This document shows positions 1-25,235 of a DNA stretch of 64,000 nucleotides, in pieces (position 1 is the stretch's first letter; every line of letters begins with the position of its first letter). The position numbers and the translations under genes are program-made. The DNA comes from an uncultured Lachnospiraceae bacterium (lineage in GTDB: Bacteria; Bacillota; Clostridia; Lachnospirales; Lachnospiraceae), in NCBI GenBank assembly GCA_946554445.1, contig CAMNSD010000007.1:1-64000 (forward strand), given 5' to 3'. The notes beneath the pieces are model-generated. The model was given only the letters and a program-made list of their open reading frames with translations, did not search any database and was not told where the DNA came from.

Positions 1-239
1 ATCCCTATATTCTTTTAGGAAGTCCTCATATGATATAATTGATATATTGTTTTTTACCCCCCCCCCGGCACTCTATCCACAATAGCTGTCGGATCTATAT
101 CCTTTGTTCGCAACAAATTAATTATCCAATCCGCACCTTGTCCAGCACCATATAAAATAATTGCCCTCGGATTTTGAGTATATACTTTCATAAACTCTTC
201 AAATAAATTTTTCATTTTACTAATTTCTGTTATATTCAT
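1..239 (-). CDS. Phase-variable gene, 5' part only, currently out of frame
   Basis: Only the beginning of this gene is inside the window; it runs off the left edge. From the ATG at 239, residues 28-56 look like the first beta-alpha-beta unit of a Rossmann-type fold (ILYGAGQGADW, then IVDR), so a nucleotide-, NAD- or SAM-binding sugar enzyme is likely, but I do not recognise the family. At codon 58 the frame enters a run of ten G and stops at TAA directly after it. With 11 or 8 G it continues as VKNNISIISYEDFLKEYRD to the window edge with no stop, which looks like ordinary coding sequence. I therefore read it as switched off by run length rather than decayed. It lies 50 bases after legB and is the last gene seen in the transcript direction. 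Confidence 0.6.
57..66 (-). repeat. Poly-G run (G10 on coding strand), tract 1, OFF state
   Basis: Ten consecutive C on the plus strand, G10 in the gene. The codons are CCG GGG GGG GGG TAA, so the present length ends the protein. Nine G also leads to an early stop (TGA after eight further codons), while 11 or 8 G keeps the frame open to the window edge. Runs of this length are known to slip during replication in Campylobacter and Neisseria; slippage here is inferred. Confidence 0.85.
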
Positions 240-289
240 GTCATTCTCTCCAAATATTTTTCTCTCAAATCTGCATCTTTTGTTCTATG

Positions 290-1270
290 CTAAACATTAT
301 AAATATCCACTTTATATCGGTTTAAATTATCTCTCAACCATTCTATCGTCTCGCTAATCCCTTGCTCAAAAGTATACTGTGGCTCCCATGCTGTGAGTCT
401 CTTGATTTTCCCGTTTGCTCCCAAAAGTCTGTTTACCTCACTTTTGAGGGGACGGAGTCTCTGTTCATCACAGACAATTTTCGCATTTGGATTAATCTGT
501 CTGATAATCTCACATGCCAAATCGCCAATAGAAATTTCCTTTTGTGTTGCAATATTAATCTCCTCCCCGATAGTTTTATCAGATTCCGCAATCGCCACAA
601 ATCCCGCCGCCGTATCCTTCACATAATTAAAATCCCTGGTTGGCGTCAAAGAACCCAGTTTAATCTCCTCTCTCCCCGACAAAAGCTGGGAGATAATTGT
701 CGGAATCACCGCCCTCGCCGACTGCCTTGGCCCGTATGTATTAAACGGTCTCACAATGGAAACTGGCAGACTAAAGCTTCGATAAAAACTCTCTGCCAGA
801 CGGTCCGCACCAATCTTTGTCGCTGAATAAGGAGACTGGCCCTGAAAAGGATGCTTCTCATCAATTGGCACATACTGCGCCGTGCCGTACACCTCTGAAG
901 TCGATGTAATCATGACACGCTCTGTCTCCAAATCCCGCGCCGCCTGTAATACATTCAATGTTCCTTTAATATTGGTATCCACATAGGAATCCGGAGAATG
1001 ATAGCTGAAAGGAATCGCTATCAGAGCCGCAAGATGAAAGACGCCGTCAATACTCCTCATTGCTTCTCGTACCCCATTAGGATCCCTGATATCTCCCGAA
1101 AAAATTTCAATTTCCCTCATTATATCCGGCGACAACGTATCGAGCCATCCCCATGTACTAAAAGAATTATAATAGGTAAATGCCCTTACCTGATACCCTT
1201 TTTCTACAAGCAGTTCTGTAAGATGGCTTCCAATAAAACCGTCCGCACCCGTTACTAATACTCTCTTCAT
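290..1270 (-). CDS. legB: NAD-dependent nucleotide-sugar 4,6-dehydratase, LegB-like
   Basis: Extended short-chain dehydrogenase of 326 residues. It shows the Rossmann motif VTGADGFIG (residues 6-14), the Ser/Thr active-site strand TSTSEVYGT (about 122-130) and YSATK (Y148, K152) as catalytic pair. The stretch FTYYNSFSTWGWLD (31-44) is typical of the LegB family, which removes water from GDP- or UDP-GlcNAc as first committed step to legionaminic acid. The ATG at 1270 is preferred to an in-frame GTG at 1276 because AGGG lies five bases before it. It sits downstream of the LegI/LegG-like genes, which supports the role. The partner aminotransferase LegC and acetyltransferase LegH are not visible and may lie left of the window. 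A different C6-deoxy amino sugar remains possible. Confidence 0.82.
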   Translation of the reverse strand: MKRVLVTGADGFIGSHLTELLVEKGYQVRAFTYYNSFSTWGWLDTLSPDIMREIEIFSGDIRDPNGVREAMRSIDGVFHLAALIAIPFSYHSPDSYVDTNIKGTLNVLQAARDLETERVMITSTSEVYGTAQYVPIDEKHPFQGQSPYSATKIGADRLAESFYRSFSLPVSIVRPFNTYGPRQSARAVIPTIISQLLSGREEIKLGSLTPTRDFNYVKDTAAGFVAIAESDKTIGEEINIATQKEISIGDLACEIIRQINPNAKIVCDEQRLRPLKSEVNRLLGANGKIKRLTAWEPQYTFEQGISETIEWLRDNLNRYKVDIYNV

Positions 1271-1283
1271 ATTCACCCTGCCT

Positions 1284-1940
1284 TTATTGAATCATTTTTA
1301 TCACTTTAAACGCCTCTGCAAATTTGACTCCAGCCTCACTTCCACGCAGCATTGCCAGCGCCTTAATATCATCTAAATTTCTTGGAAAAGGATGTTCCCC
1401 CATCTCCGTATTATATATCATAGCCGCTTGAAGTTTTTGTTCTAACGTATCCGAAATATCAATATAAAAATTAGGACTGAATGGAGACATCGGATGACCA
1501 AAATTTGTTTCTGATAAAATCTCCATTGTTAAAATTGCTTTTATGTTGGGATGTCGGAACGTCTTAGTACATGCAAAGCACCAGTCAAATACATGCTTAT
1601 GATCGGAATGCGCGTCATTATAATCGGGAAGAATAACCCAATTTGCATCAATCTGGTCAATATATGCCCCTATTTGCCCAATGGCCTCATCATCTGATAC
1701 TTTTCCCAGCTTCGTTGTTGGAAGCATAAGATTTTTCATATCATCAAATTCATAAAAATCATTAATCTGCTTTATTTGCATCGCACGAACAACTCTCTGT
1801 TCTTCAGTATAACCCAGTTCAAGCAGCATATCCGTTACATTCAACCAAAAAATTCTGTGTTCTTTTCTTAGCTTTAATATGCTCCCGCCGGCCCCTAATG
1901 TCTCGTCATCCGGATGTGGAGAAACCACTAATATATTCAT
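1284..1940 (-). CDS. PIG-L family N-deacetylase
   Basis: Zinc-dependent deacetylase of the PIG-L/LmbE family, 218 residues. The metal motif HPDDE is at residues 9-13 and the second metal ligand group HSDH at 111-114, as in active members such as MshB. The family removes acetyl groups from N-acetylated sugars. The start overlaps the stop of the upstream formyltransferase by four bases (ATGA), so the two are probably translated together. Deacetylation followed by formylation would exchange an N-acetyl for an N-formyl group on an amino sugar of this pathway; that pairing is inferred from position and chemistry. The exact substrate cannot be read from the sequence. Confidence 0.85.
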   Translation of the reverse strand: MNILVVSPHPDDETLGAGGSILKLRKEHRIFWLNVTDMLLELGYTEEQRVVRAMQIKQINDFYEFDDMKNLMLPTTKLGKVSDDEAIGQIGAYIDQIDANWVILPDYNDAHSDHKHVFDWCFACTKTFRHPNIKAILTMEILSETNFGHPMSPFSPNFYIDISDTLEQKLQAAMIYNTEMGEHPFPRNLDDIKALAMLRGSEAGVKFAEAFKVIKMIQ

Positions 1941-2824
1941 CTCAGATACTCCCCTTCCTTTAAGACAACTTCATCACAATCAAGGATATGTATTGCCCCA
2001 TTTCCCGTCTTCACTACAAAGTCGTGCTTAGAATTTACCCGGAGTATTTTTCCCGGCTCTAAATTATCCGGGATAGATTCCTGACAAACCTGTGTCCTCC
2101 AAACTTTATATTCCTTTTCTTTATCGCAAAAATGCGCACCAACATAAGGATGCGTTATGGCACGAACAAGATTATAGATACTTTCGGAACTCATCCTCCA
2201 ATCAATTTTTCCATCTAACTTATCACGTTTTCGCCATATATTACCGCCTTCATTAATCCTGACAACAGAAAATTTTCCATGCCGTTCCGCATATTCCGTA
2301 AATTCCAACACCTGCTTTGGTGCAACATCTAAAACTTTCTTATAAAGAGTCTGGGCATCATCTTCATATAATATTTCAATAGGCTCCTGACTAATAATAT
2401 CTCCTGCATCTGGTTCTGCTGTCATTTGAAAGAATGTAGAGGCTGTCTCTTTTAATCCCAATGCCAATGCCCATATCAACGGATGTCTGCCACGATTACA
2501 TGGAAGCTGCGCCGGATGAAAACCAATACCTCCTAAAGCTGGAATCTTTAGTATTTGTTCCTCGATGAGTCTGGACCATCCAAAGCAATAAATGACGTCC
2601 GGCATACATTTTCTAATAAATTTTTCCAATTCTTCTTTCGATATCTGTTCTGCACATATATATGGAATATTCCATTCTCTGCATATGGGAATCAGTGATT
2701 CAAAATCCGAATTATAGTTTGAGTTGTTCTGAGTTATCACGCCTACAACATCTTTTCCATTATTAACAAGCGCTTTTAATAGTACCACTGAAGAATAGAC
2801 ACAACCAATGTAGCATATTTTCAT
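1937..2824 (-). CDS. Sugar N-formyltransferase-like protein lacking the usual Asn
   Basis: Member of the formyltransferase fold (methionyl-tRNA formyltransferase/ArnA N-terminal family), 295 residues. The active-site block GFHPAQLPCNRGRHP covers residues 101-115, with catalytic His103 and the Asp of PDAGD at 139. Family enzymes carry an Asn two residues before the His (ArnA N102-H104-D140); here that position is Gly101. So either the mechanism is altered or the protein belongs to a variant subfamily. The ATG at 2824 is chosen because GGAGAGG lies eight bases upstream; a GTG at 2830 is the alternative. The stop overlaps the PIG-L deacetylase start. Expected role: 10-formyl-THF-dependent formylation of an amino sugar. 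Confidence 0.75.
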   Translation of the reverse strand: MKICYIGCVYSSVVLLKALVNNGKDVVGVITQNNSNYNSDFESLIPICREWNIPYICAEQISKEELEKFIRKCMPDVIYCFGWSRLIEEQILKIPALGGIGFHPAQLPCNRGRHPLIWALALGLKETASTFFQMTAEPDAGDIISQEPIEILYEDDAQTLYKKVLDVAPKQVLEFTEYAERHGKFSVVRINEGGNIWRKRDKLDGKIDWRMSSESIYNLVRAITHPYVGAHFCDKEKEYKVWRTQVCQESIPDNLEPGKILRVNSKHDFVVKTGNGAIHILDCDEVVLKEGEYLR

Positions 2825-2826
2825 AA

Positions 2827-3999
2827 TCACACCTCTCCAATATCCAAATCATAAAATCTCTTTTTCAAATCAATCGGTCTCATAAAAAGATGTTCATATA
2901 AAATATCTACAATCGCTTTAGATGTGTTTCCGTCACCATACGGGTTTTCTGCTTTTTTTATTTTTTCACGAAAAGAAATGTCTTGAGCCTTCTCTATACT
3001 TTTTGATATTGACAGCCTATCCGGTCTGCAATTAATAACGCTCTCCGCCTGTATTCTTCCCTTTTGCCTGTCTCCAATATTAATTGTCGGTATACCAAAA
3101 GAAGGAACTTCAATGATACCGCTGGATGAATTTCCAATGACGACATCCGCATACCTCAACGCACTTAAATACCTGCGCATTCCTAGAGACTCATAAACGA
3201 TTATATTGTCTGCTTCTTTTGCACTCTCATCTAGCAAATGATTAATTTCGCGGCCTCCACTATCTGCATTAGCCTTGGTACACAAATATAAATATTCTGG
3301 ATGCTCCATCATCGCTGTCAGCAGCTCCTGCATCTGTAATTTTGCAGTATTCGTTTCCAATGTTACCGGATGAAAAGTAACAACTGCATACGGTCTATCC
3401 AAACTACATTTTAGTGAATCTTGCAATTCTTCTCTGGACATAGTATCTACATGTAATGCATTTTCAACTCCCGTAGCACCTACGTTAAATACGCGATTGG
3501 GCTGTTCTCCCATCTGAATCACACGTCTCCGATACTGTTCCGTACTGGTCAGATGTAAATAACTCATTTTAGTAATCGCATGCCTTATTGCCTCATCTAT
3601 CAATCCTTCAGTAGCTTCTCCACCATGCATATGTATAATCGGAATTTGCGCATTCATAGCCGCACAGGCAACTGCCAGAATCTCGTATCGATCTCCCAGT
3701 ATAAGAATAGCATCCGGCTTACTGGCCTCAAAATATTCCGAAAAACTAATCATGGCAAGTCCCATTGCCTTAGACATCGACACGGCTGTATCTGAACTTA
3801 ATAAAATCTCTATTTTGTTATCAATGTGCTCTCCGTCCTGCTCTATCTCCTTATAGGTAGAACCGAACTCCGTTGATAAATGCATCCCTGTCACGGTCAA
3901 CTCTACCTGGAAATATCCTGACGCTCTTAATCTTTTGATCACAGGTCTTAATAACCCGTATTCTGCTCTAGTAGCAGTAATAATTGATATTTTCATCAT
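2827..3999 (-). CDS. Hydrolysing UDP-sugar 2-epimerase, NeuC/LegG type, copy 1
   Basis: GT-B-fold hydrolysing 2-epimerase of 390 residues. It releases UDP from UDP-GlcNAc (NeuC) or UDP-diNAc-bacillosamine (LegG) while inverting C2, giving the mannosamine-type substrate for the NeuB-family synthase. Visible family marks are TRAEYGLL near the N-terminus, GDRYE, HGGE, GNSSSGIIE with NIGDRQKGR, and an intact NPYGDGNTS near the C-terminus. It is followed by the formyltransferase, with the ATG/TGA region overlapping, and preceded by a close paralogue with no synthase between them. Unlike copy 2 it has no G run. NeuC and LegG cannot be told apart without a tree. Confidence 0.87.
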   Translation of the reverse strand: MMKISIITATRAEYGLLRPVIKRLRASGYFQVELTVTGMHLSTEFGSTYKEIEQDGEHIDNKIEILLSSDTAVSMSKAMGLAMISFSEYFEASKPDAILILGDRYEILAVACAAMNAQIPIIHMHGGEATEGLIDEAIRHAITKMSYLHLTSTEQYRRRVIQMGEQPNRVFNVGATGVENALHVDTMSREELQDSLKCSLDRPYAVVTFHPVTLETNTAKLQMQELLTAMMEHPEYLYLCTKANADSGGREINHLLDESAKEADNIIVYESLGMRRYLSALRYADVVIGNSSSGIIEVPSFGIPTINIGDRQKGRIQAESVINCRPDRLSISKSIEKAQDISFREKIKKAENPYGDGNTSKAIVDILYEHLFMRPIDLKKRFYDLDIGEV

Positions 4000-4033
4000 A
4001 CACTCTGCTCATACACAAAATGTCTGATTCTGT

Positions 4034-5209
4034 CTATTCCCGTAAAGGAAAATCATAAAACTTTTTCTTTAAGTCTATCTGATCTTCTAATAGAAACTTT
4101 TTGCAGACGGACAGAATCTTCATGCTTGTGCCATCCATGTCATACGGATTACGCGCAGATACCCCCCCCCCACTATAAATTGTCATTTCTAAGGCTTTAT
4201 AGATTGCTTCCTTTATCTCTTCTTTTTTTGTTTTACAATGAATCACCGTTTCTGCTGCCACCCTTCCCCTTTGTCTGTCTCCTATATCAACCGTTGGTAC
4301 CCCAAATGATGGTGCTTCCAAAATGCCGCTGGATGAATTTCCAATAACCATAGTACAATATTTTAAAGCACTTAGATATCGTTTCATTCCCAACGACGTA
4401 ACTGCCAACACGTTATCATGTTCTGCCGCATATTCATCAATCAACTGATTGATAATATATCCTCCGGTATCCGCATTTGCCTTCGTAATAATATATTTCA
4501 TTTGAAATGCATCCAGCGCATACAATACTTCTCTAAACTGATCCTCAACACTTCCTTCCTCCAAAGTAACGGGGTGAAAAGTCACCACTGCATACTGCCC
4601 TTTCAAGTCCATACCAACTGAAGCTTCCAGTTCCTCCTGTGTGAGTAGTCTTACATTTTTTATATTTTCTACCCCTAAAGAGCCTACTGTAAATACTCTG
4701 TCCGGAGATTCGCCCAACTGCACAATTCTTTTCGCATATCTTTCCGTAGAAGGAAAATGCAGATAACTAAACTTAGTAATAGCATGACGAAACACATCAT
4801 CCACTGCTCCCTCTGTAATTTCTCCTCCATGAATATGTGCAATTGGAATCCTCATGTTCACTGCTGCCAAACATACTGCAACTGTCTCATAGCGATCTCC
4901 AAGAACTACTAATAAGTCAGGCTTATTTATCTGAAAGTATTTCCCAAACTCCAATAGTGCCACTGCCATAGCTCTGCTTGTTGCAGCCGCATCATGCTTC
5001 TGATCCAAAATCGGAATTTTAGCAGTAATCGAAAAACCATCTTCTATGATTTCCTCATAGGTATATCCAAACTCCTCTGATAAATGCATCCCCGTAACCA
5101 AAATAGCCAGTTCCAACTCCTGATCTTGCTCAATACGTTCCATTAATGGTTTTAAAAGTCCATATTCCGCTCTTGTGGCCGTCAATACAGCAATGTTTTT
5201 CTTATTCAT
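4034..5209 (-). CDS. Hydrolysing UDP-sugar 2-epimerase, NeuC/LegG type, copy 2, phase-variable
   Basis: Paralogue of the gene at 2827-3999, 391 residues, with the same marks (TRAEYGLL, GDRYE, HGGE, GNSSSGILE, DIGDRQRGR). It differs in carrying a G10 run that encodes Gly347-Gly349 just before the conserved NPYDMDGTS segment. The present length keeps the frame open. With nine G translation stops 14 codons later, with eleven it stops after four codons; both lose the C-terminal conserved segment that in the family contacts the nucleotide. The paralogue has no glycine run at this place. Copy 2 directly follows the synthase gene (three bases apart), so the pair likely makes one nonulosonic acid and loses the ability when the run slips. 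Confidence 0.87.
   Translation of the reverse strand: MNKKNIAVLTATRAEYGLLKPLMERIEQDQELELAILVTGMHLSEEFGYTYEEIIEDGFSITAKIPILDQKHDAAATSRAMAVALLEFGKYFQINKPDLLVVLGDRYETVAVCLAAVNMRIPIAHIHGGEITEGAVDDVFRHAITKFSYLHFPSTERYAKRIVQLGESPDRVFTVGSLGVENIKNVRLLTQEELEASVGMDLKGQYAVVTFHPVTLEEGSVEDQFREVLYALDAFQMKYIITKANADTGGYIINQLIDEYAAEHDNVLAVTSLGMKRYLSALKYCTMVIGNSSSGILEAPSFGVPTVDIGDRQRGRVAAETVIHCKTKKEEIKEAIYKALEMTIYSGGGVSARNPYDMDGTSMKILSVCKKFLLEDQIDLKKKFYDFPLRE
4162..4171 (-). repeat. Poly-G run (G10), tract 2, ON state
   Basis: Ten C on the plus strand. Codons AGT GGG GGG GGG GTA keep the NeuC/LegG copy 2 frame open. Either single-base change gives a stop within 14 codons. The run sits in a loop that the neighbouring paralogue does not have, so three glycines are tolerated there. 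Confidence 0.88.
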
Positions 5210-5212
5210 CGC

Positions 5213-6211
5213 TCAAACCTCTATCAGCTCGTCCTCTCTAAAGTCTCTCCGTGCCTTTTTTCCGATAATCTGCTCCCAACACATCGGATTTATCCCAGTT
5301 CCCGGTCTTTTTGTGGTGAGATTATCTTCTGTAAACCTTTCGCCCGTTTTTATATCACATCGTGCAACAATACTCCTTCTCACTACATCCACATTCTTTT
5401 TCTCCGATGCAGAGGGTTCTTTACATCCATTCCCCAATGCCTGTTCAATATTTCTGACTGTCATGACCATTGCCTGTAATTCCTGCGGTTCAAGACTCGC
5501 CTTATGATCTGGCCCATCCATGTTTCTATCCAGAGTAAAGTGTTTTTCTATCACAGTTGCACCCAGGGCCGCTGCTGCTATAGGAACCTCAATTCCCTGC
5601 GTATGGTCAGAATATCCAACCGCAACGCCCAGTTCATCTCTAATCGTCACCATCGCCTGTAAATTCACATCTTTGTATGGGGTGGGGTATTCTGTATTAC
5701 AATGAAGGACTGTGATATCCCCGCTGCCATGATCCTTTAAGACTCTCACTGCTTCCCGAACTTCTTCTAACGTACTCATCCCAGATGACAATATGACTTT
5801 TTTCCCTGTTTTAGCAATTTCTCTCAAATAGGGGTAGTTAGTAATCTCTCCGGACGGAACTTTCAGAATATTAATACCACACTTTACAAGGTAATGTATG
5901 CTATCTATATCAAATGGGGTTGACAAAAACATAATATTCTTATCCATGCAATAGTCAATCAATTGCTCATGCATGTCCGGCGTTAATTCAAGCTTCCTCA
6001 ACATATCGAACTGTGATTCCGACTGCTCTGTTGTCATCATCTGATAATCAGCTTTTTTTGCATTCTTACATACTACCGCTTCTGCCCTAAATGTCTGAAA
6101 CTTTACGGCATCCGCACCAGCTAAAACAGCCTCATCCACCAACCTTTTGGCAATTTCAATATCTCCATTATGATTCACGCCCGCCTCAGCAATAATAAAT
6201 ATACTATTCAT
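5213..6211 (-). CDS. neuB: Nonulosonic acid synthase, NeuB/LegI family
   Basis: PEP-dependent synthase of 332 residues that condenses a mannosamine-type sugar with phosphoenolpyruvate to a nine-carbon acid. The N-terminal TIM-barrel part has IAEAGVNHNGD, VKFQTF, LHCNTEYPTP and GYSDHT; the C-terminal 60 residues (RRSIVARCDIKTGERFTEDN) form the antifreeze-like SAF domain that closes the active site of the dimer partner. It is the only such synthase here yet has two hydrolysing epimerases after it, so it either serves two substrates or one epimerase has another role. It overlaps the upstream formyltransferase by eight bases. The symbol neuB names the family; legI is equally possible given LegB and a PtmE-like gene nearby. 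Confidence 0.88.
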   Translation of the reverse strand: MNSIFIIAEAGVNHNGDIEIAKRLVDEAVLAGADAVKFQTFRAEAVVCKNAKKADYQMMTTEQSESQFDMLRKLELTPDMHEQLIDYCMDKNIMFLSTPFDIDSIHYLVKCGINILKVPSGEITNYPYLREIAKTGKKVILSSGMSTLEEVREAVRVLKDHGSGDITVLHCNTEYPTPYKDVNLQAMVTIRDELGVAVGYSDHTQGIEVPIAAAALGATVIEKHFTLDRNMDGPDHKASLEPQELQAMVMTVRNIEQALGNGCKEPSASEKKNVDVVRRSIVARCDIKTGERFTEDNLTTKRPGTGINPMCWEQIIGKKARRDFREDELIEV

Positions 6212-7097
6212 AGCTCTTTAATCTGTCTCCCATTTTAATTTTGCCATCATAAGTATACTCTATAATCTCCAATACAGTATCCCCTGTTTTGACAATAAAT
6301 CCATCCTCTGTTTTTCCTACAATCTGGCCGACCGTATTTTTATATACATGCGCACCCATTATCATTCTTGCCTTGTTTATATTAATCTTCTTTCCTTTGA
6401 TCCATGATACTGCCTGCGGTCCCGGTATACACAGCGCCCGTATGAAATTAAAAATCTCACGGCTGGTCTGTGTCCAGTCAATAATTTCATCTCCTGGTTC
6501 TCGTATTCCACAATAACTACCTACCGGATCAATATCTCTTTGCACAATACGCTTTACCCTATTTTCCTGAATCATTTTGATAGCTCGATACAATACATCT
6601 GCACAACCATCATACGCTCTGTCGAGCAATGTTGCGTATGTATCCTCATCTGTAATTGGATAAACTTCTTGCAGTATGATATCCCCCGTATCAATGCCTT
6701 CGTCAAAATAATGAACAGTTATTCCAAACTCTTTTTCATCATTAATCAATGCCCAATTTAAAATATTCCTTCCTCTATAAAACGGAAGTTTCCCCGCATG
6801 GCAATTAATGGATTTAAATTTGGGCAGATTTATCATGTCTGTTTTAAATATTTGATTAAAAGACATTGATACAAATAAATCAATATCATATGATTTCATT
6901 TTATCAATAAATAATGGTGCATTTATATTTGGGCTTAATTCCACAGGTATACTATAATTCTCTGCCATTCTTATCAATTCAACGTCTCTTTTATCATATC
7001 TAACAGTCACAAATATAATCTCCAGAGATTCATCTGCAATTATCTTCTCAAATGCCTTATGCGCCCATGGACCATCTGCAAAATATCCTATTCTCAT
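6204..7097 (-). CDS. Sugar N-formyltransferase with intact N-H-D triad
   Basis: Formyltransferase-fold protein of 297 residues. The catalytic triad of the family is complete: Asn98 and His100 in SINCHAGKLPFYRGR and Asp136 in DEGIDTGDI. It should transfer a formyl group from 10-formyl-THF to the free amine of a nucleotide-linked amino sugar, as in Qui4N-formylating enzymes. The ATG at 7097 overlaps the TGA of the methyltransferase (ATGA). The reading frame is also open upstream through GTG at 7118 to the G run in the methyltransferase, so a slipped run would produce a 591-residue fusion of both proteins. Substrate candidates are dTDP-Qui4N made by the VioA-like enzyme at 14591 or a deacetylated Leg intermediate. 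Confidence 0.85.
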   Translation of the reverse strand: MRIGYFADGPWAHKAFEKIIADESLEIIFVTVRYDKRDVELIRMAENYSIPVELSPNINAPLFIDKMKSYDIDLFVSMSFNQIFKTDMINLPKFKSINCHAGKLPFYRGRNILNWALINDEKEFGITVHYFDEGIDTGDIILQEVYPITDEDTYATLLDRAYDGCADVLYRAIKMIQENRVKRIVQRDIDPVGSYCGIREPGDEIIDWTQTSREIFNFIRALCIPGPQAVSWIKGKKININKARMIMGAHVYKNTVGQIVGKTEDGFIVKTGDTVLEIIEYTYDGKIKMGDRLKSYE

Positions 7098-14578: not shown

Positions 14579-14590
14579 ATGGCACCTCTT

Positions 14591-15700: not shown

Positions 15701-15717
15701 ATCACTGCCTTACCCTT

Positions 15718-17505: not shown

Positions 17506-17535
17506 GCAAATCGTTCCTTTTCACAATATCCAAGA

Positions 17536-18441
17536 CTATACATCCATCAATATCCATTCTTTCATATAGATACCCACACTCATATCTTCCGTAAGACACC
17601 ACTTCTTAGGGGCGATCACCACCTTATCTTTGGCCTCGCCCAAAAACTGCGCCCACCAACTGTAAGTACTATTCGACATGATAAAATGGCGACAATTTTT
17701 CATCAGATACAAATCCTCATAATCTTCATGATGATCTTTAATATACACTACCGGACATGGAAATTTCATGTTATTTTCAACCTCATCAACCGTGTCTGAA
17801 AATATATAAAAAACTGCATCCGGCATTATTTCCTGCATATATTTCATGGCATTAAAATAATAGGAATCCCCACATACATCGAAAATTGGGTTATTGACAT
17901 AATCACCTCTTCGTATATGGACACAGACCGCGTTCGTGGAAAGAATCTGTTGACAGGCAAATGTATTGGAGATATCGGTCGGCTTCCATCTAAAATCTTC
18001 TAGCAAAAGTTCACGAATCGGTTGTAACGGTTCTGCTTCCTGAAACCATCCGTTCATATAAATATTTTTATGAAATTTCAACCATAATTTCTCCTTTATG
18101 AGACTATGATCTCTCTGTACAACTCCAAAAAAAGCAAAAAAACTCGACCAAAAATCCTCCCGTTTTCCAGCTATTCCTTCCTGCCGTCCCGCAATAAAAT
18201 AAGAAACCAGCTTCTTATCCAGCATTTCTTGCAACCTTGCTGTTTTACCCTTATTTTCCACCACCTCAACTTTATCAAAAAACTCAAAATGGCACAAAGC
18301 AAAACTACGTAACTTATCCCTATTGATAACAGACAAATCTAATCCTATTGTATCAATTCCATATTCAAGCTGCAATTTTCTTGCCATAGCGTACTCAAAC
18401 ATCTGATTGCCAAGTCCGCCTTTGATTCTGACAATAATCAT
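17536..18441 (-). CDS. GT11 alpha-1,2-fucosyltransferase-like, copy 1
   Basis: GDP-fucose-type transferase of the GT11 family, about 301 residues. It begins MIIVRIKGGLGNQMFEY and has the family motif HIRRGDY at 175-181 and the late SNSTYSWWAQFLG. ATG 18441 is chosen since the family starts there; GAGG lies about 11 bases upstream. Predicted to add fucose to a galactose or GalNAc of a repeat unit. No GDP-fucose pathway genes are visible in the window. A second GT11 is at 59114. Confidence 0.88.
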   Translation of the reverse strand: MIIVRIKGGLGNQMFEYAMARKLQLEYGIDTIGLDLSVINRDKLRSFALCHFEFFDKVEVVENKGKTARLQEMLDKKLVSYFIAGRQEGIAGKREDFWSSFFAFFGVVQRDHSLIKEKLWLKFHKNIYMNGWFQEAEPLQPIRELLLEDFRWKPTDISNTFACQQILSTNAVCVHIRRGDYVNNPIFDVCGDSYYFNAMKYMQEIMPDAVFYIFSDTVDEVENNMKFPCPVVYIKDHHEDYEDLYLMKNCRHFIMSNSTYSWWAQFLGEAKDKVVIAPKKWCLTEDMSVGIYMKEWILMDV

Positions 18442-18492
18442 TTTGTTAGTACCTCGACAAACACGGGCCATCTTTTTTAACCCTATAATCTA

Positions 18493-19221
18493 TTATTTCG
18501 ATACAAAAACAAATCCTTCCGGCTGATATAGACAAGTGTTAAATGCCAGCCTTTTACCATCAACAGTATTCACGGTGTAATATCCAAGCCCTTTATGGTC
18601 TGGTCTATTGATATCCATATCTATCTCAAACGGTGCATATTGAAAATTTTCATATCCATAATCTCTAAATAATTCTGCAATTTTGGGAATAGAATATATA
18701 TTATAATATACTTGTGAAAAATCAGATTCCTTCGTTGGTTTTTCATAGTTTTCAAGACTAATCGTATAATTAATTGCGCCTTCATAAAATAAGGAGGAAA
18801 ATGCAATCCATTTCGGATTCAATTTGCACATCTCCTTAATCGGTGTCCTATACTCTGGCAGCCAAGAAAGCGTTTGTAGACTGATAATACCGTCAAATTT
18901 ATCTTTTAACGTCTCATCTAGCCTGAAAATATCTCCATATTCAAATCGGATATTATCATCTGCCCCCTGATACAAGCCAAATAATTTAGTATTGATATCT
19001 ATCCCCGTAAATCTACTACTCAAATGTTTTTGAGCCAGATAGGATGTCCCTGCCCCCGGCCCACATCCAATATCCAAGATATCCTTATTATCAAGATTTG
19101 TATGCAATGACAAAAACTCATCGAAAGCAACTGTAATCCTGTAGGGTTCCTTGAATTGTCTTGTATACCATTCAAGATTATTTTCCTCTGTCCAATAATC
19201 AATATTTTCTTTTTTCTGCAT
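18493..19221 (-). CDS. Class I SAM methyltransferase
   Basis: 242 residues with motif I ILDIGCGPGAGTSYL (about 47-61), the acidic residue in FTGIDINT and FEYGDIF. Acceptor unknown; the location suggests methylation of a sugar. The gene is clearly A+T-rich compared with the right half of the window, and a TGTTATAAT box stands just upstream, so it may begin its own transcript. ATG 19221 is directly preceded by an in-frame GTG. Confidence 0.78.
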   Translation of the reverse strand: MQKKENIDYWTEENNLEWYTRQFKEPYRITVAFDEFLSLHTNLDNKDILDIGCGPGAGTSYLAQKHLSSRFTGIDINTKLFGLYQGADDNIRFEYGDIFRLDETLKDKFDGIISLQTLSWLPEYRTPIKEMCKLNPKWIAFSSLFYEGAINYTISLENYEKPTKESDFSQVYYNIYSIPKIAELFRDYGYENFQYAPFEIDMDINRPDHKGLGYYTVNTVDGKRLAFNTCLYQPEGFVFVSK

Positions 19222-19265
19222 CACAATCTTTGTTCCCCTGTTCTATTCATAATATGATTCATCCC

Positions 19266-19274
19266 ATTATAACA
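19266..19274 (-). promoter_or_regulatory. Possible extended -10 promoter element
   Basis: The minus strand reads TGTTATAAT, a full TGN-TATAAT match, 45 bases before the methyltransferase start at 19221. The -35 position has only a poor match. It lies in the 72-base gap after the GT2 gene and may start a transcript for the fucosyltransferase/flippase block. Confidence 0.42.
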
Positions 19275-19296
19275 GATTACTCCGCGTATCTAATAT

Positions 19297-20280
19297 CTAT
19301 TTCCTGTGAGTAAATTTTAAAAATCTTTCTCGTCCCAATATTCTATACATAAAATAGAGTAATGGATCATTATACCATTTTGCCCGTTTACTATTCCATT
19401 CACAGTTATCATCTAAAAGGCTGTCATTAAAAAAGCTCTGCTCAACTTGACTAAGTCTATACTCAAAATCCTTATCCATATCCAGTTGCAAACTGCTATG
19501 TTTTCTATAACCCTCTAAATTACCTGTAATATTTTGACCGCTTCCGTCCCAACCCCAATTTCTTACTTTTGACTTCACTGGATTAATTGTGCAAAATCCA
19601 TTAATTGCCAAAAAAATGCCTCTATTAATATCTGTATTTAATAACTTACGCTCGTCTTGGCTACTTATAATTTCTCCAACCATCCTAGAAAAGAGCCGTG
19701 GTCTTGCACGATAAATACTCATCATCAGCCGAATATTCTGTGCTGCACCAATCCAGTTTTGTATTGTCAACTGCTCCTGAATTATCTTTTCTTTCTTTTT
19801 CCAAATTCCCATCCCCCAAGCACAAAAATTAGTCAGCGGAATAACATTGTCTTCTCCACTTCTAAATTTACAGTCATCCGCATAACCGCATACTCCATAA
19901 ATTCTGGGATGATTCTCATATAATTCCAGACCTTTATTCATATATATTAAAAAATTAGTGGAAAACTCATTATCATCTTCCGTAAAAATCAACCTATCAT
20001 ACTTTTTAAAAATCAGCTTTTCCAAATAACTATAATTGTTTTCTGCTCCCAAATTAACTTTTTGGAAAAAAATATGCGTTTTTAAAAAGACTTTTAATGG
20101 ACCATTCAACATCTTACATACTTTTTCCCACCCCTCAATATATTTCTCATTGGGCGGATAATCAACACTAATATATATTTCTGTCCGATCAGCATATGTG
20201 TTTTTCTGTAAAGACTCAATGCATCTTTTTAAATGTTCATATCTGTTGCATGTAGTTATCATAACCGGAGCATATATCAT
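19297..20280 (-). CDS. GT2-like glycosyltransferase
   Basis: 327 residues. The N-terminus APVMITTCNRYEHLKRCIESL and IYISVDYPP fit the GT-A fold, and LIFTEDDNEF supplies a metal-binding acidic motif at about residue 100. No membrane helix, so cytoplasmic or membrane-associated. Donor and acceptor cannot be inferred. It is one of the most A+T-rich genes here: the line 19621-19680 has 18 G/C in 60 bases by hand count. A GGA-containing ribosome site (GAAAGGAT) precedes the start. Confidence 0.75.
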   Translation of the reverse strand: MIYAPVMITTCNRYEHLKRCIESLQKNTYADRTEIYISVDYPPNEKYIEGWEKVCKMLNGPLKVFLKTHIFFQKVNLGAENNYSYLEKLIFKKYDRLIFTEDDNEFSTNFLIYMNKGLELYENHPRIYGVCGYADDCKFRSGEDNVIPLTNFCAWGMGIWKKKEKIIQEQLTIQNWIGAAQNIRLMMSIYRARPRLFSRMVGEIISSQDERKLLNTDINRGIFLAINGFCTINPVKSKVRNWGWDGSGQNITGNLEGYRKHSSLQLDMDKDFEYRLSQVEQSFFNDSLLDDNCEWNSKRAKWYNDPLLYFMYRILGRERFLKFTHRK

Positions 20281-20350
20281 AAACGTATGCCATCCTTTCT
20301 ATCAGCAACCTAACCTTCGCGCTATAAACCCTCTCTATCGGTCTGGAGTT

Positions 20351-20881
20351 TTATATTCCTGCCCCATAAAGATCCTCGATGATCTGCTCCCACTCACCAC
20401 GCATTTTAAGCATGGCACAAATCACATCCCGAACGGCTCCATATCCGCCTTTTACTCCGGAAATATAGTCCGCCTGCGCTTTGACTTCCTCACAGGCATC
20501 CGCCGGACATCCCACAAAACCACATAACTTCATAGGCGCCCAATCGTTTATGTCGTCCCCGATATAGCCGATTTCCTGTTTAGCTATATTGTTTGACTCC
20601 ATAAACTCCTTCAAATAGGAAACTTTATCCTTACAATTCTGCACAATATAATCAAACTTCATCTCCTGAAGCCTACGCATGGTCGCCTGACACTCACGGC
20701 CCGTCAACGCCATCAGCCGAATCCCCTTTTGATGTGCCGCAAAATATCCTGCCGCATCTTTCGTACAAAATTTTTTTAGTTCATTACCGTTTTCGTCATA
20801 ATATATTCCGGCATCCGTCATCGTACCATCCACGTCTATCACCAGATACCTGATTTCCTGTACACTCTGCTTATCAAACAT
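20351..20881 (-). CDS. KdsC-like HAD phosphatase
   Basis: 176-residue HAD-IIIA protein of the KdsC / CMP-sialate synthetase C-terminal type. DVDGTMTDAG holds the nucleophile Asp and acid Asp, ALTGR motif II, K in NCKDKVSYL motif III and GYIGDDINDW motif IV. It would remove phosphate from a 3-deoxy-ulosonic acid phosphate. ATG 20881 has GAGGA nine bases upstream; the frame extends to 20905 but overlaps the upstream gene. With the aldolase fusion at 22466 and the cytidylyltransferase at 26515 it could form a route to an activated keto-acid sugar. Confidence 0.82.
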   Translation of the reverse strand: MFDKQSVQEIRYLVIDVDGTMTDAGIYYDENGNELKKFCTKDAAGYFAAHQKGIRLMALTGRECQATMRRLQEMKFDYIVQNCKDKVSYLKEFMESNNIAKQEIGYIGDDINDWAPMKLCGFVGCPADACEEVKAQADYISGVKGGYGAVRDVICAMLKMRGEWEQIIEDLYGAGI

Positions 20882-20892
20882 AATCTTGTTCC

Positions 20893-22449
20893 TCACTGTA
20901 CACACCGCAGCATCTCCTCCCGGCTGTCGAAGATAAATACCCGATAATTATCTGTCTGGTAATCGGCTTCTCGACTATCCAATGCTGCTTTCAATGGACA
21001 CGCCTCATATTCCTCATTTGTAAAGAGAAAGAACATCCTTCCTTCCGGTTTCACAATCTGATGCACTGCTTCCTGCAGCCACGGTTTTATCTCTTCTACA
21101 TTATACTTGTCGGGCAGACTGCTCCACACCCACACTTCAATCTCGCCATCTGACAATTCCGTCAATACATTCCCATTCCAAAAAGTAGCATACCCTTCCG
21201 ATATCCCCTGGTCTTCTGCCAGATATTCCACAATCAATCTAAATTCCTCCGTCTTATCCACACTGCCATAACGAGCATACCTGAACGCACTGCTGATCAA
21301 TATACCACCAACGATTACCCCCCCCCCTATCAAAAAACACAGTTTCCAATGCTTATTCCATTCCATATCATACAAAGTACTCACGATAATCGGAATGGCA
21401 AACATCATGGCCTGCATGATATACCGATCGGAATAATTCATACTGGTAAACGTATAGATTCCCAAGAAAACTATATACACACATGTAAAATATAGTGTCA
21501 ACAGCCACATTTCATCAGGCTTCCTAATTTTTCTGACAAGCGTCCAAAGTACACATACCACCATAACTAGCGCCAACACACAACTAAATGCACTTGACAG
21601 CGGCGTTCTGGGAGAACCGCCATAAGAATACCCAAAATACCGGAGTGTTCCAAAGAAAAGGTCATAAAAGCCCCTCATGGATACTTGAAAGGTCATTCCG
21701 GACCACGTTGCAAAATGATAAGCAGTCGCCAAGACTATTACATTAATCAGACAACCTGCACAGGAAGAGACAAATGCTGTTACCGCACATATCAGATAAT
21801 CCGTGAATTTCCTCTGGATGAGTGCATGTAATATAGCAGCCCCTAACAACGGTGAATACAGCACCACAACTTGTCTGACACCGCTCATTCCCGCCATAAC
21901 CGCCAACAAAACAGTAAGCGCCAGCAAGATCTTTTTCATTCTTGCAGACGCCTTTCCGTAATGAAACACCATTCCTACTGCAAAAAAGGATATAATAATA
22001 AACGCTGCATATACAAGCCACAGCAGGACAAATTCAAAATAATTATCCGAAAGGGGTAAAAACAAAAAAACTGCAGATACTGCAAAAACCCTATCATAAC
22101 CCATCTGATGAAGCAGATAATAATAACTCACGAGCATCAACAGATAAGTCGTAATACAAGTTGCAGTTCTGACCATTGTCCAGTCCTGAAAGAAATTAAA
22201 AAATAAGGAGTAGAATATCTGCATATTCAATACTTTTATTTCTGTTGAATAAAACCAGTTTTTAGAAAGGAAAGCATGTTCCTCATGAAGAAGCTTTGCC
22301 ATAACCATTTCACTGGAAAGATCCGAATCAGTCAATCTATCCCCACAAACCCACATAAAAACAGAAAGAAAACAAATCAGGCCAATCAAAAAAATCCAGG
22401 GCAGGAACCTCACATATTTTTTAATTCCATTATTCGAAACCTGTTCCAT
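20893..22449 (-). CDS. Multi-pass membrane protein, possible GT-C transferase, phase-variable
   Basis: 518 residues with an N-terminal helix (WIFLIGLICFLSVFMWVCG) followed by about ten more hydrophobic segments and a soluble C-terminal part of about 130 residues. An acidic loop right after helix 1 (GDRLTDSDLSS) is where GT-C glycosyltransferases carry their catalytic Asp, so a polyprenyl-phosphate-sugar-dependent transferase is a fair guess, not proven. A G10 run encodes three glycines inside a late membrane segment (LCFLIGGGVIVGGILIS). Nine G stops translation at once; eleven G gives a stop 22 codons later. Both remove the C-terminal domain. Confidence 0.6.
   Translation of the reverse strand: MEQVSNNGIKKYVRFLPWIFLIGLICFLSVFMWVCGDRLTDSDLSSEMVMAKLLHEEHAFLSKNWFYSTEIKVLNMQIFYSLFFNFFQDWTMVRTATCITTYLLMLVSYYYLLHQMGYDRVFAVSAVFLFLPLSDNYFEFVLLWLVYAAFIIISFFAVGMVFHYGKASARMKKILLALTVLLAVMAGMSGVRQVVVLYSPLLGAAILHALIQRKFTDYLICAVTAFVSSCAGCLINVIVLATAYHFATWSGMTFQVSMRGFYDLFFGTLRYFGYSYGGSPRTPLSSAFSCVLALVMVVCVLWTLVRKIRKPDEMWLLTLYFTCVYIVFLGIYTFTSMNYSDRYIMQAMMFAIPIIVSTLYDMEWNKHWKLCFLIGGGVIVGGILISSAFRYARYGSVDKTEEFRLIVEYLAEDQGISEGYATFWNGNVLTELSDGEIEVWVWSSLPDKYNVEEIKPWLQEAVHQIVKPEGRMFFLFTNEEYEACPLKAALDSREADYQTDNYRVFIFDSREEMLRCVQ
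21318..21327 (-). repeat. Poly-G run (G10), tract 4, ON state
   Basis: Ten C on the plus strand. Codons ATA GGG GGG GGG GTA; at nine G the next codon becomes TAA. The run codes glycines in a membrane helix that also carries GVIVGG, so glycine is naturally acceptable there. Confidence 0.87.
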
Positions 22450-22465
22450 ATAGTATCACATCTCC

Positions 22466-24037
22466 TTACCCATTATATAAAGATTCGGTCAAAAACACAA
22501 CCTCTATCTGTTTGCGGATCTTCTCCACATATGCACGGTTTCTGATGTTTTCTTCCATCCCCTTGGTATGCTGGCTGGCCATATAAGATGTTACATAATT
22601 ATCTCCATCTTTCTGATAACCGTCAAAACCTGCCACACAAATCCTTTCCACTTTCAGCTTCATCAAAAGTTTCATCAACATAATGACACAGTTGTCACAA
22701 ACGCCTTTCTCGTCAAAAGAAAGATCGGCATAATTCAGCATATCACGTTCCTCGCACACATCCATGAGATTAGATGTCACCAGGACCGTACTATCCTGCT
22801 TCTTTTCTTTCAACGCATCATAGCGCATGGCATTGGAGCAGAAGATATAATCCGCCTGATAATCCACCGGTATAAAGTTCGCTGCGATTACCACTGGCTT
22901 TTCTTCTCGAATAAAGGATTCAATCTTGTCCATCTGCTTTAAAATACTTGCCCCAGGCGCAAGTATCAGCACCTGCTTTCCTCTCAATTCCTCCTGAAGT
23001 GCAGCAATCAGCCTTGCATCATCCACCTCGTGATTCTGAAATTTACAATACAACTCTTCGATATATTTCTCATCATATGCAGTTTTCTTATGTTCTTCTA
23101 TCCCTGCCAGAATCTGATTAATCTGCTTCGCCCGCAGCCGTCCCTTTCCGATCAGATACTCCGCATAATTCCTGTGCAGATTAAACTTGGCTGACAATGC
23201 GTAGGGCGTACTATAGCCCCAGGGTTCAATCTGTTTTAACTGGATAATATGATCGTCTATCCCATCCAGCACAGGATTCACATCATAGACGGCCCCCTGT
23301 GTTTTATTCATATAATCCATGATCAATTCCATACACAGGTTCCCCGGCGTCCTGCCCATTCCCAGCATGGAAGCATCGATCACACTCTTTCTCTCGCTGG
23401 CCTTCATGGAAATAAATTCCTGCGCCAACGAATAGGATAAGGCCAGATTCTCATGCAGATGCAGGCCGATAACAATGGATTTGTCCAGGTTATGTTCGAC
23501 CAGAGAATATATTCTGAGCAGATCGGACTTCATCATGGAACCGAAGGTGTCCACAACGGAGAAAGCATACGGCTGAATCTGGTTGACCTTTTCTAAGAGA
23601 TTTAAAATCATCTCGTCCGAATATCCCATAATATTAATGGGATTACAGAACACCTTATAGCCTTTCTCCTTCACTTTCTTGACAAAGGCAAGCCCCTCGT
23701 CGATATCATAATCATGAAACGTCACCCGGACTGCGTCAATGGTCTTTCCATCGTAGGGTTCCAGCTTCTCCACAGAATATTTATTATGAAGCGCCATCGC
23801 GGTAAAAATAGTGTTTCCCTTCTTCTGCGGCAGCACCGGCTGTATCTGGGCGCAGTTATTATACAGGCTTTTATTCCTGTCATATTCGCAGTCCCTTAAA
23901 AACCCCACCTCTACATAATCGACCTGGGAATCTACCAGCTTCTTGATAATGCTTTTAATGGTATGATATCCAAAATCCCAGTCGTTAATATATCCGCCGT
24001 CGCGCAGCGTGCAATCCAATAACTTTATCAGCGACAT
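22466..24037 (-). CDS. HMGL-like aldolase fused to an MptE/DUF115-like domain
   Basis: 523 residues. The first 300 form a DRE-TIM aldolase barrel: LLDCTLRDGGYINDW with the metal Asp, and GLHLHENLALS with the HxH ligands, as in 4-hydroxy-2-oxovalerate aldolase. From about 350 a second Rossmann-like domain starts (KQVLILAPGASILKQMDKIE), resembling the MptE/DUF115 type seen in glycan loci. Catalytic residues for a pyruvate-dependent carbon-carbon bond reaction appear kept. The substrate is unknown; the phosphatase and cytidylyltransferase nearby suggest a keto-acid sugar. ATG 24037 is supported by GGAG nine bases upstream. A strong promoter lies in the gap before it. Confidence 0.75.
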   Translation of the reverse strand: MSLIKLLDCTLRDGGYINDWDFGYHTIKSIIKKLVDSQVDYVEVGFLRDCEYDRNKSLYNNCAQIQPVLPQKKGNTIFTAMALHNKYSVEKLEPYDGKTIDAVRVTFHDYDIDEGLAFVKKVKEKGYKVFCNPINIMGYSDEMILNLLEKVNQIQPYAFSVVDTFGSMMKSDLLRIYSLVEHNLDKSIVIGLHLHENLALSYSLAQEFISMKASERKSVIDASMLGMGRTPGNLCMELIMDYMNKTQGAVYDVNPVLDGIDDHIIQLKQIEPWGYSTPYALSAKFNLHRNYAEYLIGKGRLRAKQINQILAGIEEHKKTAYDEKYIEELYCKFQNHEVDDARLIAALQEELRGKQVLILAPGASILKQMDKIESFIREEKPVVIAANFIPVDYQADYIFCSNAMRYDALKEKKQDSTVLVTSNLMDVCEERDMLNYADLSFDEKGVCDNCVIMLMKLLMKLKVERICVAGFDGYQKDGDNYVTSYMASQHTKGMEENIRNRAYVEKIRKQIEVVFLTESLYNG

Positions 24038-24062
24038 TGACACTCACTCCAATCTCCCAAAA

Positions 24063-24102
24063 CTGAGAATCTTCTCTAGCGTCCACTATATCATATTCTC
24101 AG
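24063..24102 (-). promoter_or_regulatory. Second extended -10 box inside a perfect 8-bp inverted repeat
   Basis: CTGAGAAT (24063-24070) and ATTCTCAG (24095-24102) are perfect inverted copies. Between them the minus strand reads TGATATAGT (24085-24093), then GGACGC, the same series of bases as in the promoter 86 bases upstream (TGATATAATGGACGC). This looks like a duplicated promoter core, weaker because of TATAGT and no clear -35. Confidence 0.4.
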
Positions 24103-24128
24103 ATGCTGTAATCCCTGGCAATGACAAC

Positions 24129-24149
24129 AAGAATTGCATAGCAATTCTT
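24129..24149 (-). other. Hairpin in 5' leader of the aldolase gene
   Basis: AAGAATTGC and GCAATTCTT form a perfect 9-bp stem with a three-base loop. It lies between the predicted start of transcription (near 24164) and the aldolase ATG at 24037. It is not followed by a U run on the minus strand, so it does not look like a terminator. Confidence 0.5.
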
Positions 24150-24150
24150 A

Positions 24151-24170
24151 GGACGCAGACTGCTGCGTCC
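24151..24170 (-). other. Hairpin at the predicted transcript start
   Basis: GGACGCAG and CTGCGTCC form a perfect 8-bp stem with a four-base loop directly downstream of the TATAAT box. It may cap the RNA 5' end or be a protein site; either is inference. Confidence 0.5.
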
Positions 24171-24200
24171 ATTATATCACCGACCCTAACATACAGGCAA
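24171..24200 (-). promoter_or_regulatory. Strong candidate promoter upstream of the aldolase gene
   Basis: Minus strand: -35 TTGCCT (24195-24200), 18-base spacer, then TGA-TATAAT (24171-24179), a full extended -10. It is the best sigma-A-type promoter I find in the window. It would drive the aldolase, the switchable membrane protein and the phosphatase, and probably the blocks further left. Confidence 0.65.
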
Positions 24201-24232
24201 GCTATCCTTTCTCCTTTGCACGCAGTCTAATT

Positions 24233-25235
24233 TTATTTTCTGCATACAATCAATTCTATATTACCATACATCGTAGAAAACTTAGAAAATACGCTTTGAT
24301 AAGATCCCAATATACAATCGCATCTCGACAAACACAAGCAGTCAACAATGGCCGACTCCATCCCCAGCCTGCTGTTTCTTCCCCATGTTTTGTTAGAATA
24401 GGTATAGATACGGCCCGGAAATACCCGACTAAGTTCTTTTTCCACATCACGATCGTCTGTGGCTAAGAAAAAGCGGACCGCCTCATGATCTGCCATTATT
24501 TCCTTCATTTTACAAATAAAACTATCCAGAGTACTTTCTTCTATACTAGCCCTGTGATCTGTTCTCCTAACATGTACGCCAATCCATGTACCCCCCCCCC
24601 TTAGGTACTAGGGCGTTTGCAATTTTGTAAAATTTATCGCGAAAAATAAGCACAGATATATCTACGGACTCCTCCATCTCTTCATCTTTAATCAATCCAC
24701 AATATATCCCCGCGCAGAAATTAACTTTCTTTTCAAGATACTGCTTAATCCTCTTCCAGCAGCCTATTATCCATTCCCCATATGCCTTACCGTCCCATCC
24801 AATCTCCGCCGGAGGATCGTATCTCACATAAGTATCCTTCTCTCTAAAATAATCCATCAGGCGCTGTGCTCTGCAGTTGTAAAGTTTTCTTGCAAGGTAT
24901 AATACCCATTCTCTCAGGCAGGATAGCACTTTTCCTATTTGTCCTTTCCGCACATAAGCCTTGACGCCCTCTCCCCAATTTGGCGGGAAAAACTTGTAGT
25001 TCATGACAATCAAGTTGACATCTTTGAACTGCTCCTTGTCAAAAACGTCGTCATATTTAATGTTGCACCATTTTTCAAGCTGCCATATAACGATTACATT
25101 TGAGATATTATATTTCTTTGCCAGATAATATGCCTGTGACAAAGAAATACAGCGGCTTGTAATTCCACTGTATACATGAACGCATATACACCTTTCCTTC
25201 TTCCAGATTGCTCCAGTAAACATTTTTCTTCCCAT
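24233..25235 (-). CDS. FUT8-like glycosyltransferase, phase-variable, currently out of frame
   Basis: Read in the two frames joined at the G run this is a complete 333-residue transferase. The first part (ATG 25235, with GAGG about seven bases upstream) has CVHVYSGITSRCISLSQAYY and VIVIWQLEKWCN, the usual opening of fucosyltransferase-like enzymes. At present it ends eight codons after the run with YMDWRTC and a stop. With 9 or 12 G the frame continues into IGVHVRRTDH, FFLATDD and SRLGMESAIVDCLCLSRCD, the ordered motifs of the FUT8/NodZ group (GT23). The join falls just before the donor-binding HVRRTD, so the short form must be inactive. An ATG at 25256 that overlaps the GT4 stop is an alternative start. 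Confidence 0.8.
24591..24600 (-). repeat. Poly-G run (G10), tract 5, OFF state
   Basis: Ten C on the plus strand. Codons AAG GGG GGG GGG TAC lead to an early TAG. Nine or twelve G restore a 333-residue protein; eleven gives a stop 15 codons after the run. Clearest case of a frame broken exactly at the run. Confidence 0.9.

What the first reader, a model, noticed from the sequence alone, without database searches (positions are those of the whole stretch)
57..24600. Five G10 runs in one Gram-positive glycan locus: a multi-gene phase-variation system
Seen: runs of exactly ten G on the coding strand at 57-66, 4162-4171, 7148-7157, 21318-21327 and 24591-24600, each inside a different gene; no other C or G run in the window exceeds seven. 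Two genes are broken precisely at the run and reopen when its length changes, three are intact. Known: poly-G slippage switches glycan and flagellar genes in Campylobacter. Inferred: this locus makes up to 32 on/off combinations in a presumed gut Lachnospiraceae, a group for which inversion-type switching is better known than run slippage.
Basis: partly seen in the sequence, partly recalled or inferred. Interest (0 to 1): 0.93.

Follow-up and report, generated by a model that had tools for sequence, protein, structure and literature searches.

The report
Poly-G switches across a commensal genome
A bacterium likely of the family Lachnospiraceae carries 34 runs of nine or more G's, five of them in a sugar-coat gene cluster, and two of those genes occur in public sequences in both an open and a broken form, so the runs likely act as slippage switches that would let cells vary their surface at random.

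Summary
Five ten-base C runs (G on the coding strand) lie at the stated places; the next longest G/C run is seven. The genome has 34 runs of nine or more against 2.0-6.8 expected, and 73 of 77 genomes of the genus have at least one.

Phase variation is supported by sequences from elsewhere. The fucosyltransferase-like gene is broken at G10 in the window, but a public protein identical on both sides of the tract runs through it (P0121). A second species shows the same pair (P0122 and genome G082). The GT-C-like glycosyltransferase is open at G10; a public protein differing at 4 of the 374 residues before the tract is truncated as eleven G's predict (P0144). Slippage itself was not observed.

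Genus tracts peak at length ten, lie in genes, against -10-like boxes or near start codons, and share an A/T-G/C flank pattern that is alike in all reading frames and outside genes. It held in three genomes not used to find it and is absent from short G runs. It is unexplained and is the most novel part.

The parts
57..66 (-). G10 tract; ends the ORF 54-239 (61 aa, ...VPGGG*), 56 bases from the contig edge; gene unidentified
   Evidence: no NCBIfam match
4162..4171 (-). G10 tract in the NeuC-type epimerase gene, open at this length (glycines from residue 347 of 391)
4034..5209 (-). NeuC-type hydrolysing UDP-GlcNAc 2-epimerase, 391 aa
   Evidence: PF02350; TIGR03568 463 bits, cut-off 236; solved relatives 5zlr/5xvs
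7148..7157 (-). G10 tract at the 3' end of the methyltransferase gene; at this length its stop overlaps the formyltransferase start (ATGA, 7097-7094)
7094..7978 (-). methyltransferase ORF, 294 aa as assembled
   Evidence: Pfam methyltransferase domains; homologues
6204..7097 (-). formyltransferase from its conserved start MRIGYFADG (the mechanical ORF begins at 7118)
   Evidence: PF00551/PF02911; P0006
21318..21327 (-). G10 tract in the GT-C-like gene, open at this length (glycines after residue 374 of 518)
20893..22449 (-). predicted GT-C-fold membrane glycosyltransferase, 518 aa
   Evidence: model pLDDT 86; oligosaccharyltransferase and ArnT folds at TM 0.48-0.52; public truncated form P0144
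24591..24600 (-). G10 tract that breaks the fucosyltransferase-like gene
24233..25289 (-). fucosyltransferase-like gene in two frames: 24567-25289 as assembled (240 aa) and its remainder 24233-24590
   Evidence: PF10250 under cut-off; P0121 model pLDDT 88 with NodZ/POFUT folds, E 1e-8
290..63399 (-). surrounding glycan locus: NeuB (5213-6211), nucleotidyl- and aminotransferases, glycosyltransferases, ABC transporters, WecG-type and Bac_transf enzymes, CotH proteins
   Evidence: Pfam; NeuB TIGR03569

Best explanation
Five runs of ten G's sit in or at the ends of five genes of this glycan locus, and two of those genes occur in public sequences in both the open and the broken reading frame, so the runs are likely slipped-strand phase-variation switches. 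Shown: the tracts, their frames, and both phases of the fucosyltransferase-like gene (in two species) and of the GT-C-like gene. Inferred: replication slippage gains or loses G's, so that a population is a mix of cells with and without the NeuC-type epimerase, the GT-C enzyme and the fucosyltransferase. At 7148 the tract would not switch the methyltransferase off; it would set whether its stop overlaps the formyltransferase start (coupled), lies 43 bases before it (uncoupled) or is absent (one fused protein). The locus is one part of a genome-wide set of 34 tracts, of which some non-coding ones likely act by changing the spacing of promoter boxes.
For: Excess over chance (2.0-6.8 expected, 34 found) and a length peak at ten (24 of 34). 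Own-species pairs: P0121 is identical to the window on both sides of the tract (212 of 212 and 118 of 118 residues) and open; P0144 differs at 4 of 374 residues before the tract and has the out-of-frame tail of an eleven-G tract with one substitution. Second species: G082 has G10 at the same place and is broken, P0122 matches it 209 of 209 and 118 of 118 and is open. P0131, 67% identical, ends in the same kind of out-of-frame tail. Seven tract sites are shared between two or more of seven genus genomes, five of them with different lengths. Tract genes elsewhere are often glycan, surface or regulator genes.
Against: No reads or isolates were available, so length change in a lineage, its rate and reversibility are not shown. 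Database lengths of G tracts can be wrong (B. breve paper PMC9187656, passages), and some gene callers repair frameshifts (recalled), which could produce P0121 or P0122, though not P0144. Mismatch repair is present (own genome has MutS and MutL domains). The third window search gave no same-species pair. Most tract-bearing genes are rare in the genus: the fucosyltransferase-like gene was found in 6 of 77 genomes and the GT-C-like one in 9 of 77, and the two well-matched GT-C homologues examined there (L190, L191) lack a long run at the site.
Confidence: 0.82

Rival explanations
1. The tract lengths are stable in cells, and the two phases in databases come from sequencing, assembly or frameshift-repairing gene prediction.
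For: Only assembled or predicted sequences were seen. The authors of the B. breve study warn that annotated G-tract lengths can differ from those in the culture (PMC9187656, passages).
Against: P0144 has four substitutions before the tract and carries the out-of-frame tail itself, so it is another strain and not a repaired frame. The same gene shows both phases in two species. The tract excess, length peak and shared sites are not made by random error.
Confidence: 0.1
2. The tracts are decaying or neutral G runs: broken genes are pseudogenes and the runs carry no function.
For: Homologues of the GT-C-like protein mostly lack the glycines (24 of 25 rows other than the window, P0143 and P0144 have a gap there). 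Expression was not tested.
Against: Breaks sit at the tract and the frames on both sides are otherwise open. Runs of 5-7 lack the flank pattern that long tracts have. Lengths peak at ten instead of falling off (82 of 118).
Confidence: 0.06
3. The tracts act through slippage of RNA polymerase or the ribosome, so every cell makes a mix of products whatever the DNA length.
For: Transcriptional slippage at homopolymers is described (PMC6260861, seen in a search listing only). A flank pattern that ignores the frame could serve such a process.
Against: DNA-level length differences exist between copies of the same gene. Non-coding tracts have the same flank pattern.
Confidence: 0.1

Closest known systems
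Campylobacter jejuni poly-G contingency loci (29 polyG/polyC loci of seven or more in NCTC11168; PMC4965091, abstract and passages; cgtB switching in PMC6437147, passages)
   Same: Many poly-G tracts of about 8-12 in surface-glycan genes; a frame shift truncates the enzyme.
   Different: Likely Gram-positive host with MutS and MutL domains; a shared flank pattern here, whereas the C. jejuni paper reports no effect of flanks on slippage in PCR.
Helicobacter canadensis homopolymer genes (PMC2823697, passages and section 6)
   Same: Tracts in promoters, in genes and at gene ends; one candidate in which a phase merges two neighbouring genes; one tract at the end of a formyltransferase gene.
   Different: There read data showed length ranges; here only assemblies. 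Here the junction joins a methyltransferase and a formyltransferase gene with an ATGA overlap.
Bifidobacterium breve sortase-pilus G-tract switch (PMC9187656, passages)
   Same: Poly-G slippage switch of a surface structure in a gut commensal of the Gram-positive kind.
   Different: There two pilus loci in the strain studied; here 34 tracts in one genome, many in glycan genes, and some promoter-type.
Promoter-spacer switches such as porA, opc and fim (recalled, no call)
   Same: A homopolymer between a -35 and a -10 box.
   Different: Only 6 of 38 non-coding tracts showed both boxes by my test, at spacing 18-19; no expression data.

Membership tests
Slipped-strand (homopolymer) phase variation | Homopolymeric tract well above chance in or next to genes | tested here: met
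Slipped-strand (homopolymer) phase variation | Change of tract length moves the gene between an open and a broken frame | tested here: met
   By frame analysis for 4162, 21318 and 24591; 7148 is a junction, 57 is cut by the contig edge
Slipped-strand (homopolymer) phase variation | Different lengths or phases among strains of one species | tested here: met
   Two of three window genes searched and one gene in a second species; from assemblies and predicted proteins only
Slipped-strand (homopolymer) phase variation | High-rate, reversible change within a lineage | not testable with these tools
   needs reads or cultures
Slipped-strand (homopolymer) phase variation | Surface or expression phenotype follows the phase | not testable with these tools
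   needs cultures
Epsilonproteobacterial-type poly-G system | No MutS/MutL mismatch repair (feature recalled) | tested here: not met
   MutS_I in 19 of 21 and MutL_C in 20 of 21 genomes searched, own genome included
Promoter-spacer phase variation (non-coding tracts of the genus) | Tract between a -35 and a -10 box | tested here: inconclusive
   -10-like hexamer at the tract in 18 of 38 non-coding and 1 of 62 open-gene tracts; both boxes in 6 of 38
Invertible-promoter (inverton) switching | Inverted repeats around an invertible segment, with a recombinase | not tested
   no inverted-repeat search was run

The most novel reading that the evidence does not exclude
In this genus poly-G switches are not random expansions: a dedicated process installs or holds tracts of about ten G's at sites with a set DNA context (A/T block nine to five bases before, TAAAW directly after, G/C blocks outside), inside genes in any frame and in promoters alike, as a general way to make a gene switchable.
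Probability: 0.2. Interest if true: 0.92.

Novelty: new variant of a known kind. Interest (0 to 1): 0.76.

Why it matters
Poly-G contingency systems are known best from Gram-negative mucosal pathogens. A dense genome-wide set in a likely Lachnospiraceae genus would mean that assembled genomes of such bacteria record one of many surface states, that 'broken' glycan genes in them may be switched off and not dead, and that escape from phages or antibodies by slippage could be tested in commensals. The flank pattern would make it testable how such tracts arise and are kept.

Tried and rejected
A Pfam hint (E 4e-4, under the cut-off) suggested an acyltransferase for the 518-aa protein; the predicted fold is GT-C-like and I dropped the first name. 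The 591-aa methyltransferase-formyltransferase fusion as the native form: the homologues listed are separate proteins and the formyltransferase start is conserved, so fusion is one phase only. Loss of mismatch repair as the cause: rejected. TAA after the tract as a mere stop trick: it does not explain the A/T block before the tract, and the pattern is present in all three phases and outside genes. Hidden promoters inside genes: 1 of 62 open-gene tracts has a -10-like hexamer at the tract. Flanks that raise slippage: not supported in C. jejuni by PCR (PMC4965091). Nine literature searches listed no paper on poly-G phase variation in Lachnospiraceae; listings were capped, and the library holds only open-licence papers. 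The genus could not be named.

Rows dropped: tracts beside runs of N were left out of the analysis of 137 tracts; 136 with 30-base flanks were classified, 131 with 100-base flanks entered the profile, and 118 remained after removing shared sites, near-duplicates and two doubtful cases, L107 and L089. The two doubtful cases are still in the 38 non-coding tracts. All 34 own-genome tracts were taken; of the other genomes only tracts with listed coordinates that fitted the fetch cap.

Full report
CHECK. The window is the first 64 kb of contig C7 of a genome of 4.39 Mb in 87 contigs, 96% complete. The genome has 34 runs of nine or more (16 forward, 18 reverse), with lengths 9 (1), 10 (24), 11 (6), 12 (1), 14 (1) and 16 (1). 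Markov models expect 2.0-6.8.

SPREAD. In the genus 73 of 77 genomes have at least one tract of nine or more; among those at least 90% complete and at most 5% contaminated, 39 of 39; counts run from 0 to 87. In 396 genomes drawn from the family (three of them from this genus) 261 have at least one, mostly a few. For tracts of ten or more in 398 genomes of the phylum, 191 have at least one; the own genome has 33, and two others have 20 or more (G681 with 55, G595 with 29). So long G runs are not special to this group, but a dense set is unusual. The named relative found is an uncultured Lachnospiraceae MAG, 60% identical to the 518-aa protein, without a tract at that site.

THE FIVE WINDOW TRACTS. 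(i) 4162: NeuC-type epimerase (TIGR03568), open at G10; in other phases the last 40 or so residues are lost or replaced. A paralogue at 2827-3999, 51% identical, could back it up. (ii) 21318: 518 aa, open at G10. The model (pLDDT 86) matches oligosaccharyltransferases (E 2e-4) and ArnT (E 6e-3) at TM scores of 0.48-0.52, so GT-C is a predicted fold. The glycines lie in a predicted long helix, and other phases would remove the C-terminal part. (iii) 24591: broken at G10. The open form P0121 is modelled at pLDDT 88 and resembles NodZ and POFUT fucosyltransferases (E 1e-8, TM about 0.5); Pfam O-FucT is under its cut-off. The tract falls just before the strand that leads to HVRRTDH, so the window form lacks the C-terminal domain. 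(iv) 7148: the methyltransferase is complete, since P0001 (79% identical) ends near there. At G10 its stop overlaps the conserved formyltransferase start as ATGA. In a second phase the stop lies 43 bases before that start, in the third the frames are continuous, 590-591 aa. Coupling is inferred. (v) 57: ORF of 61 aa ending at the tract near the contig edge.

BOTH PHASES. P0121 equals the window on both sides of the tract (212 of 212 and 118 of 118 residues) and is open, while the window is broken. The search shows '-' for its sources, which the tool uses for proteins of the window; the window's DNA as assembled does not read it in one frame. Genome G082, 75% identical in the first part, has G10 at the same place and is broken; P0122 matches it without a mismatch on both sides and is open. 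P0144 differs from the window's GT-C-like protein at 4 of 374 residues before the tract and then has the tail that eleven G's give, with one substitution. The methyltransferase search listed no same-species entry among 120 of 4109 hits. In the genus, the fucosyltransferase-like gene was found in 6 of 77 genomes and the GT-C-like one in 9 of 77. Of the fucosyltransferase-like orthologues, those in G084 and G045 have no long run, G082 has one.

GENOME-WIDE SET. Further tract genes in this genome include a sugar transferase, acyltransferases, an MBOAT protein, a GT2 enzyme, two sulfatase-family proteins (one under the cut-off), a MatE protein, methyltransferases, solute-binding proteins, two LytTR response regulators and a histidine kinase whose tract lies at the junction with an AraC-type response regulator; several others had no family. 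Three tandem genes for related proteins with predicted signal peptides (by eye) each have a G10 or G11 tract directly before TATAAT. In six other genomes of the genus, 66 tract genes or pieces matched 51 families, of which 25 were shown: LRR_5 (3), flagellin N-terminus (3), methyltransferases (3 each), prepilin peptidase (2), MBOAT (2), acyltransferase (2), GT2 (2), a DNA methylase (1) and others. No background set was scanned, so a bias to surface functions is an impression.

LAYOUTS. Of 136 genus tracts 62 lie in open genes, 17 in broken genes or at gene ends, 18 near a 5' end, 38 without a gene on the G strand, 1 ambiguous (my own rules, not a gene caller). Of the 38, 18 have a -10-like hexamer at the tract against 1 of 62 in open genes (Fisher p 1.6e-8), and 6 also have a TTG-type -35 at spacing 18-19. 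One 5' site shared by three genomes reads G10-TAAA(A)ATG, where the tract could also serve as ribosome-binding site.

FLANK PATTERN. A/T is high at -9 to -5 and +1 to +5 (mostly T-A-A-A) and low at -13 to -11 and +7 (131 tracts). It was seen in four genomes (97 tracts) and held in three others (39 tracts). It is absent around 360 runs of G5-7 and 275 runs of A7-9 from the same loci, and weaker in 46 tracts of other genera. It is alike in open genes of each phase (31, 13 and 18 tracts) and in 38 non-coding tracts, and remains with 118 tracts after removal of shared sites. The mean match score is 10.7 of 15 against 7.7 at 20,000 random places; the score was defined on these tracts, so the held-out genomes are the fair test. 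In the GT-C-like protein the glycines are an insertion: 24 of 25 other homologues have a gap there, and P0179 has other residues. In NeuC the glycines replace residues, with a one-residue gap to the paralogue. Whether this is where tracts arise, where they are kept, or a binding site, I cannot say.

MISMATCH REPAIR. MutS and MutL domains are present in the own genome and in 19 and 20 of 21 genomes searched, so loss of repair is not the cause.

KNOWN OR NEW. Slipped-strand phase variation at poly-G is a known kind (C. jejuni, H. canadensis, B. breve; papers seen by passages or sections as cited). The testable defining features are met; rate, reversibility and phenotype are not testable here. 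New, as far as my nine searches of an open-licence library go, are the dense set in a likely Lachnospiraceae genus and the flank pattern.

Noticed in passing
L018:3001, 3994, 4986 (G000:C13:99034-101029): Three tandem genes for related proteins that look secreted, each behind its own G10/G11 tract placed directly before TATAAT.
   Followed up: partly
L032:3001-3010 (G000:C35): Tract at the junction of a histidine kinase and an AraC-type response regulator; at G10 the kinase stops right after the tract and the regulator starts 10 bases on, so another phase could fuse or uncouple a two-component pair.
   Followed up: partly
L015:3001, L024:3001 (G000:C10, C20): Tracts just before, or at the end of, LytTR response-regulator genes: possible switching of regulators.
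   Followed up: no
L051, L074, L133 (three genus genomes): Shared 5' tract G10-TAAA(A)ATG before a long ORF; the tract could double as ribosome-binding site.
   Followed up: partly
G681 and G595 (same phylum, other families): The only other genomes of 398 with 20 or more tracts of ten or more (55 and 29).
   Followed up: no
G028 (same order, another family): 119 forward and 23 reverse matches to nine G's, counted as overlapping nine-mers: a dense set outside the genus.
   Followed up: no
G005, G087, G014, G088, G010, G090 (same genus): 63-87 tracts per genome, far above the rest of the genus; not examined, and their base composition is unknown to me.
   Followed up: no
window:46301-50099: Two adjacent CotH-kinase-domain proteins inside the glycan locus.
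   Followed up: no
window:2827-3999: A second NeuC-like epimerase, 51% identical to the tract-bearing one and without a tract: a possible backup when the switch is off.
   Followed up: partly
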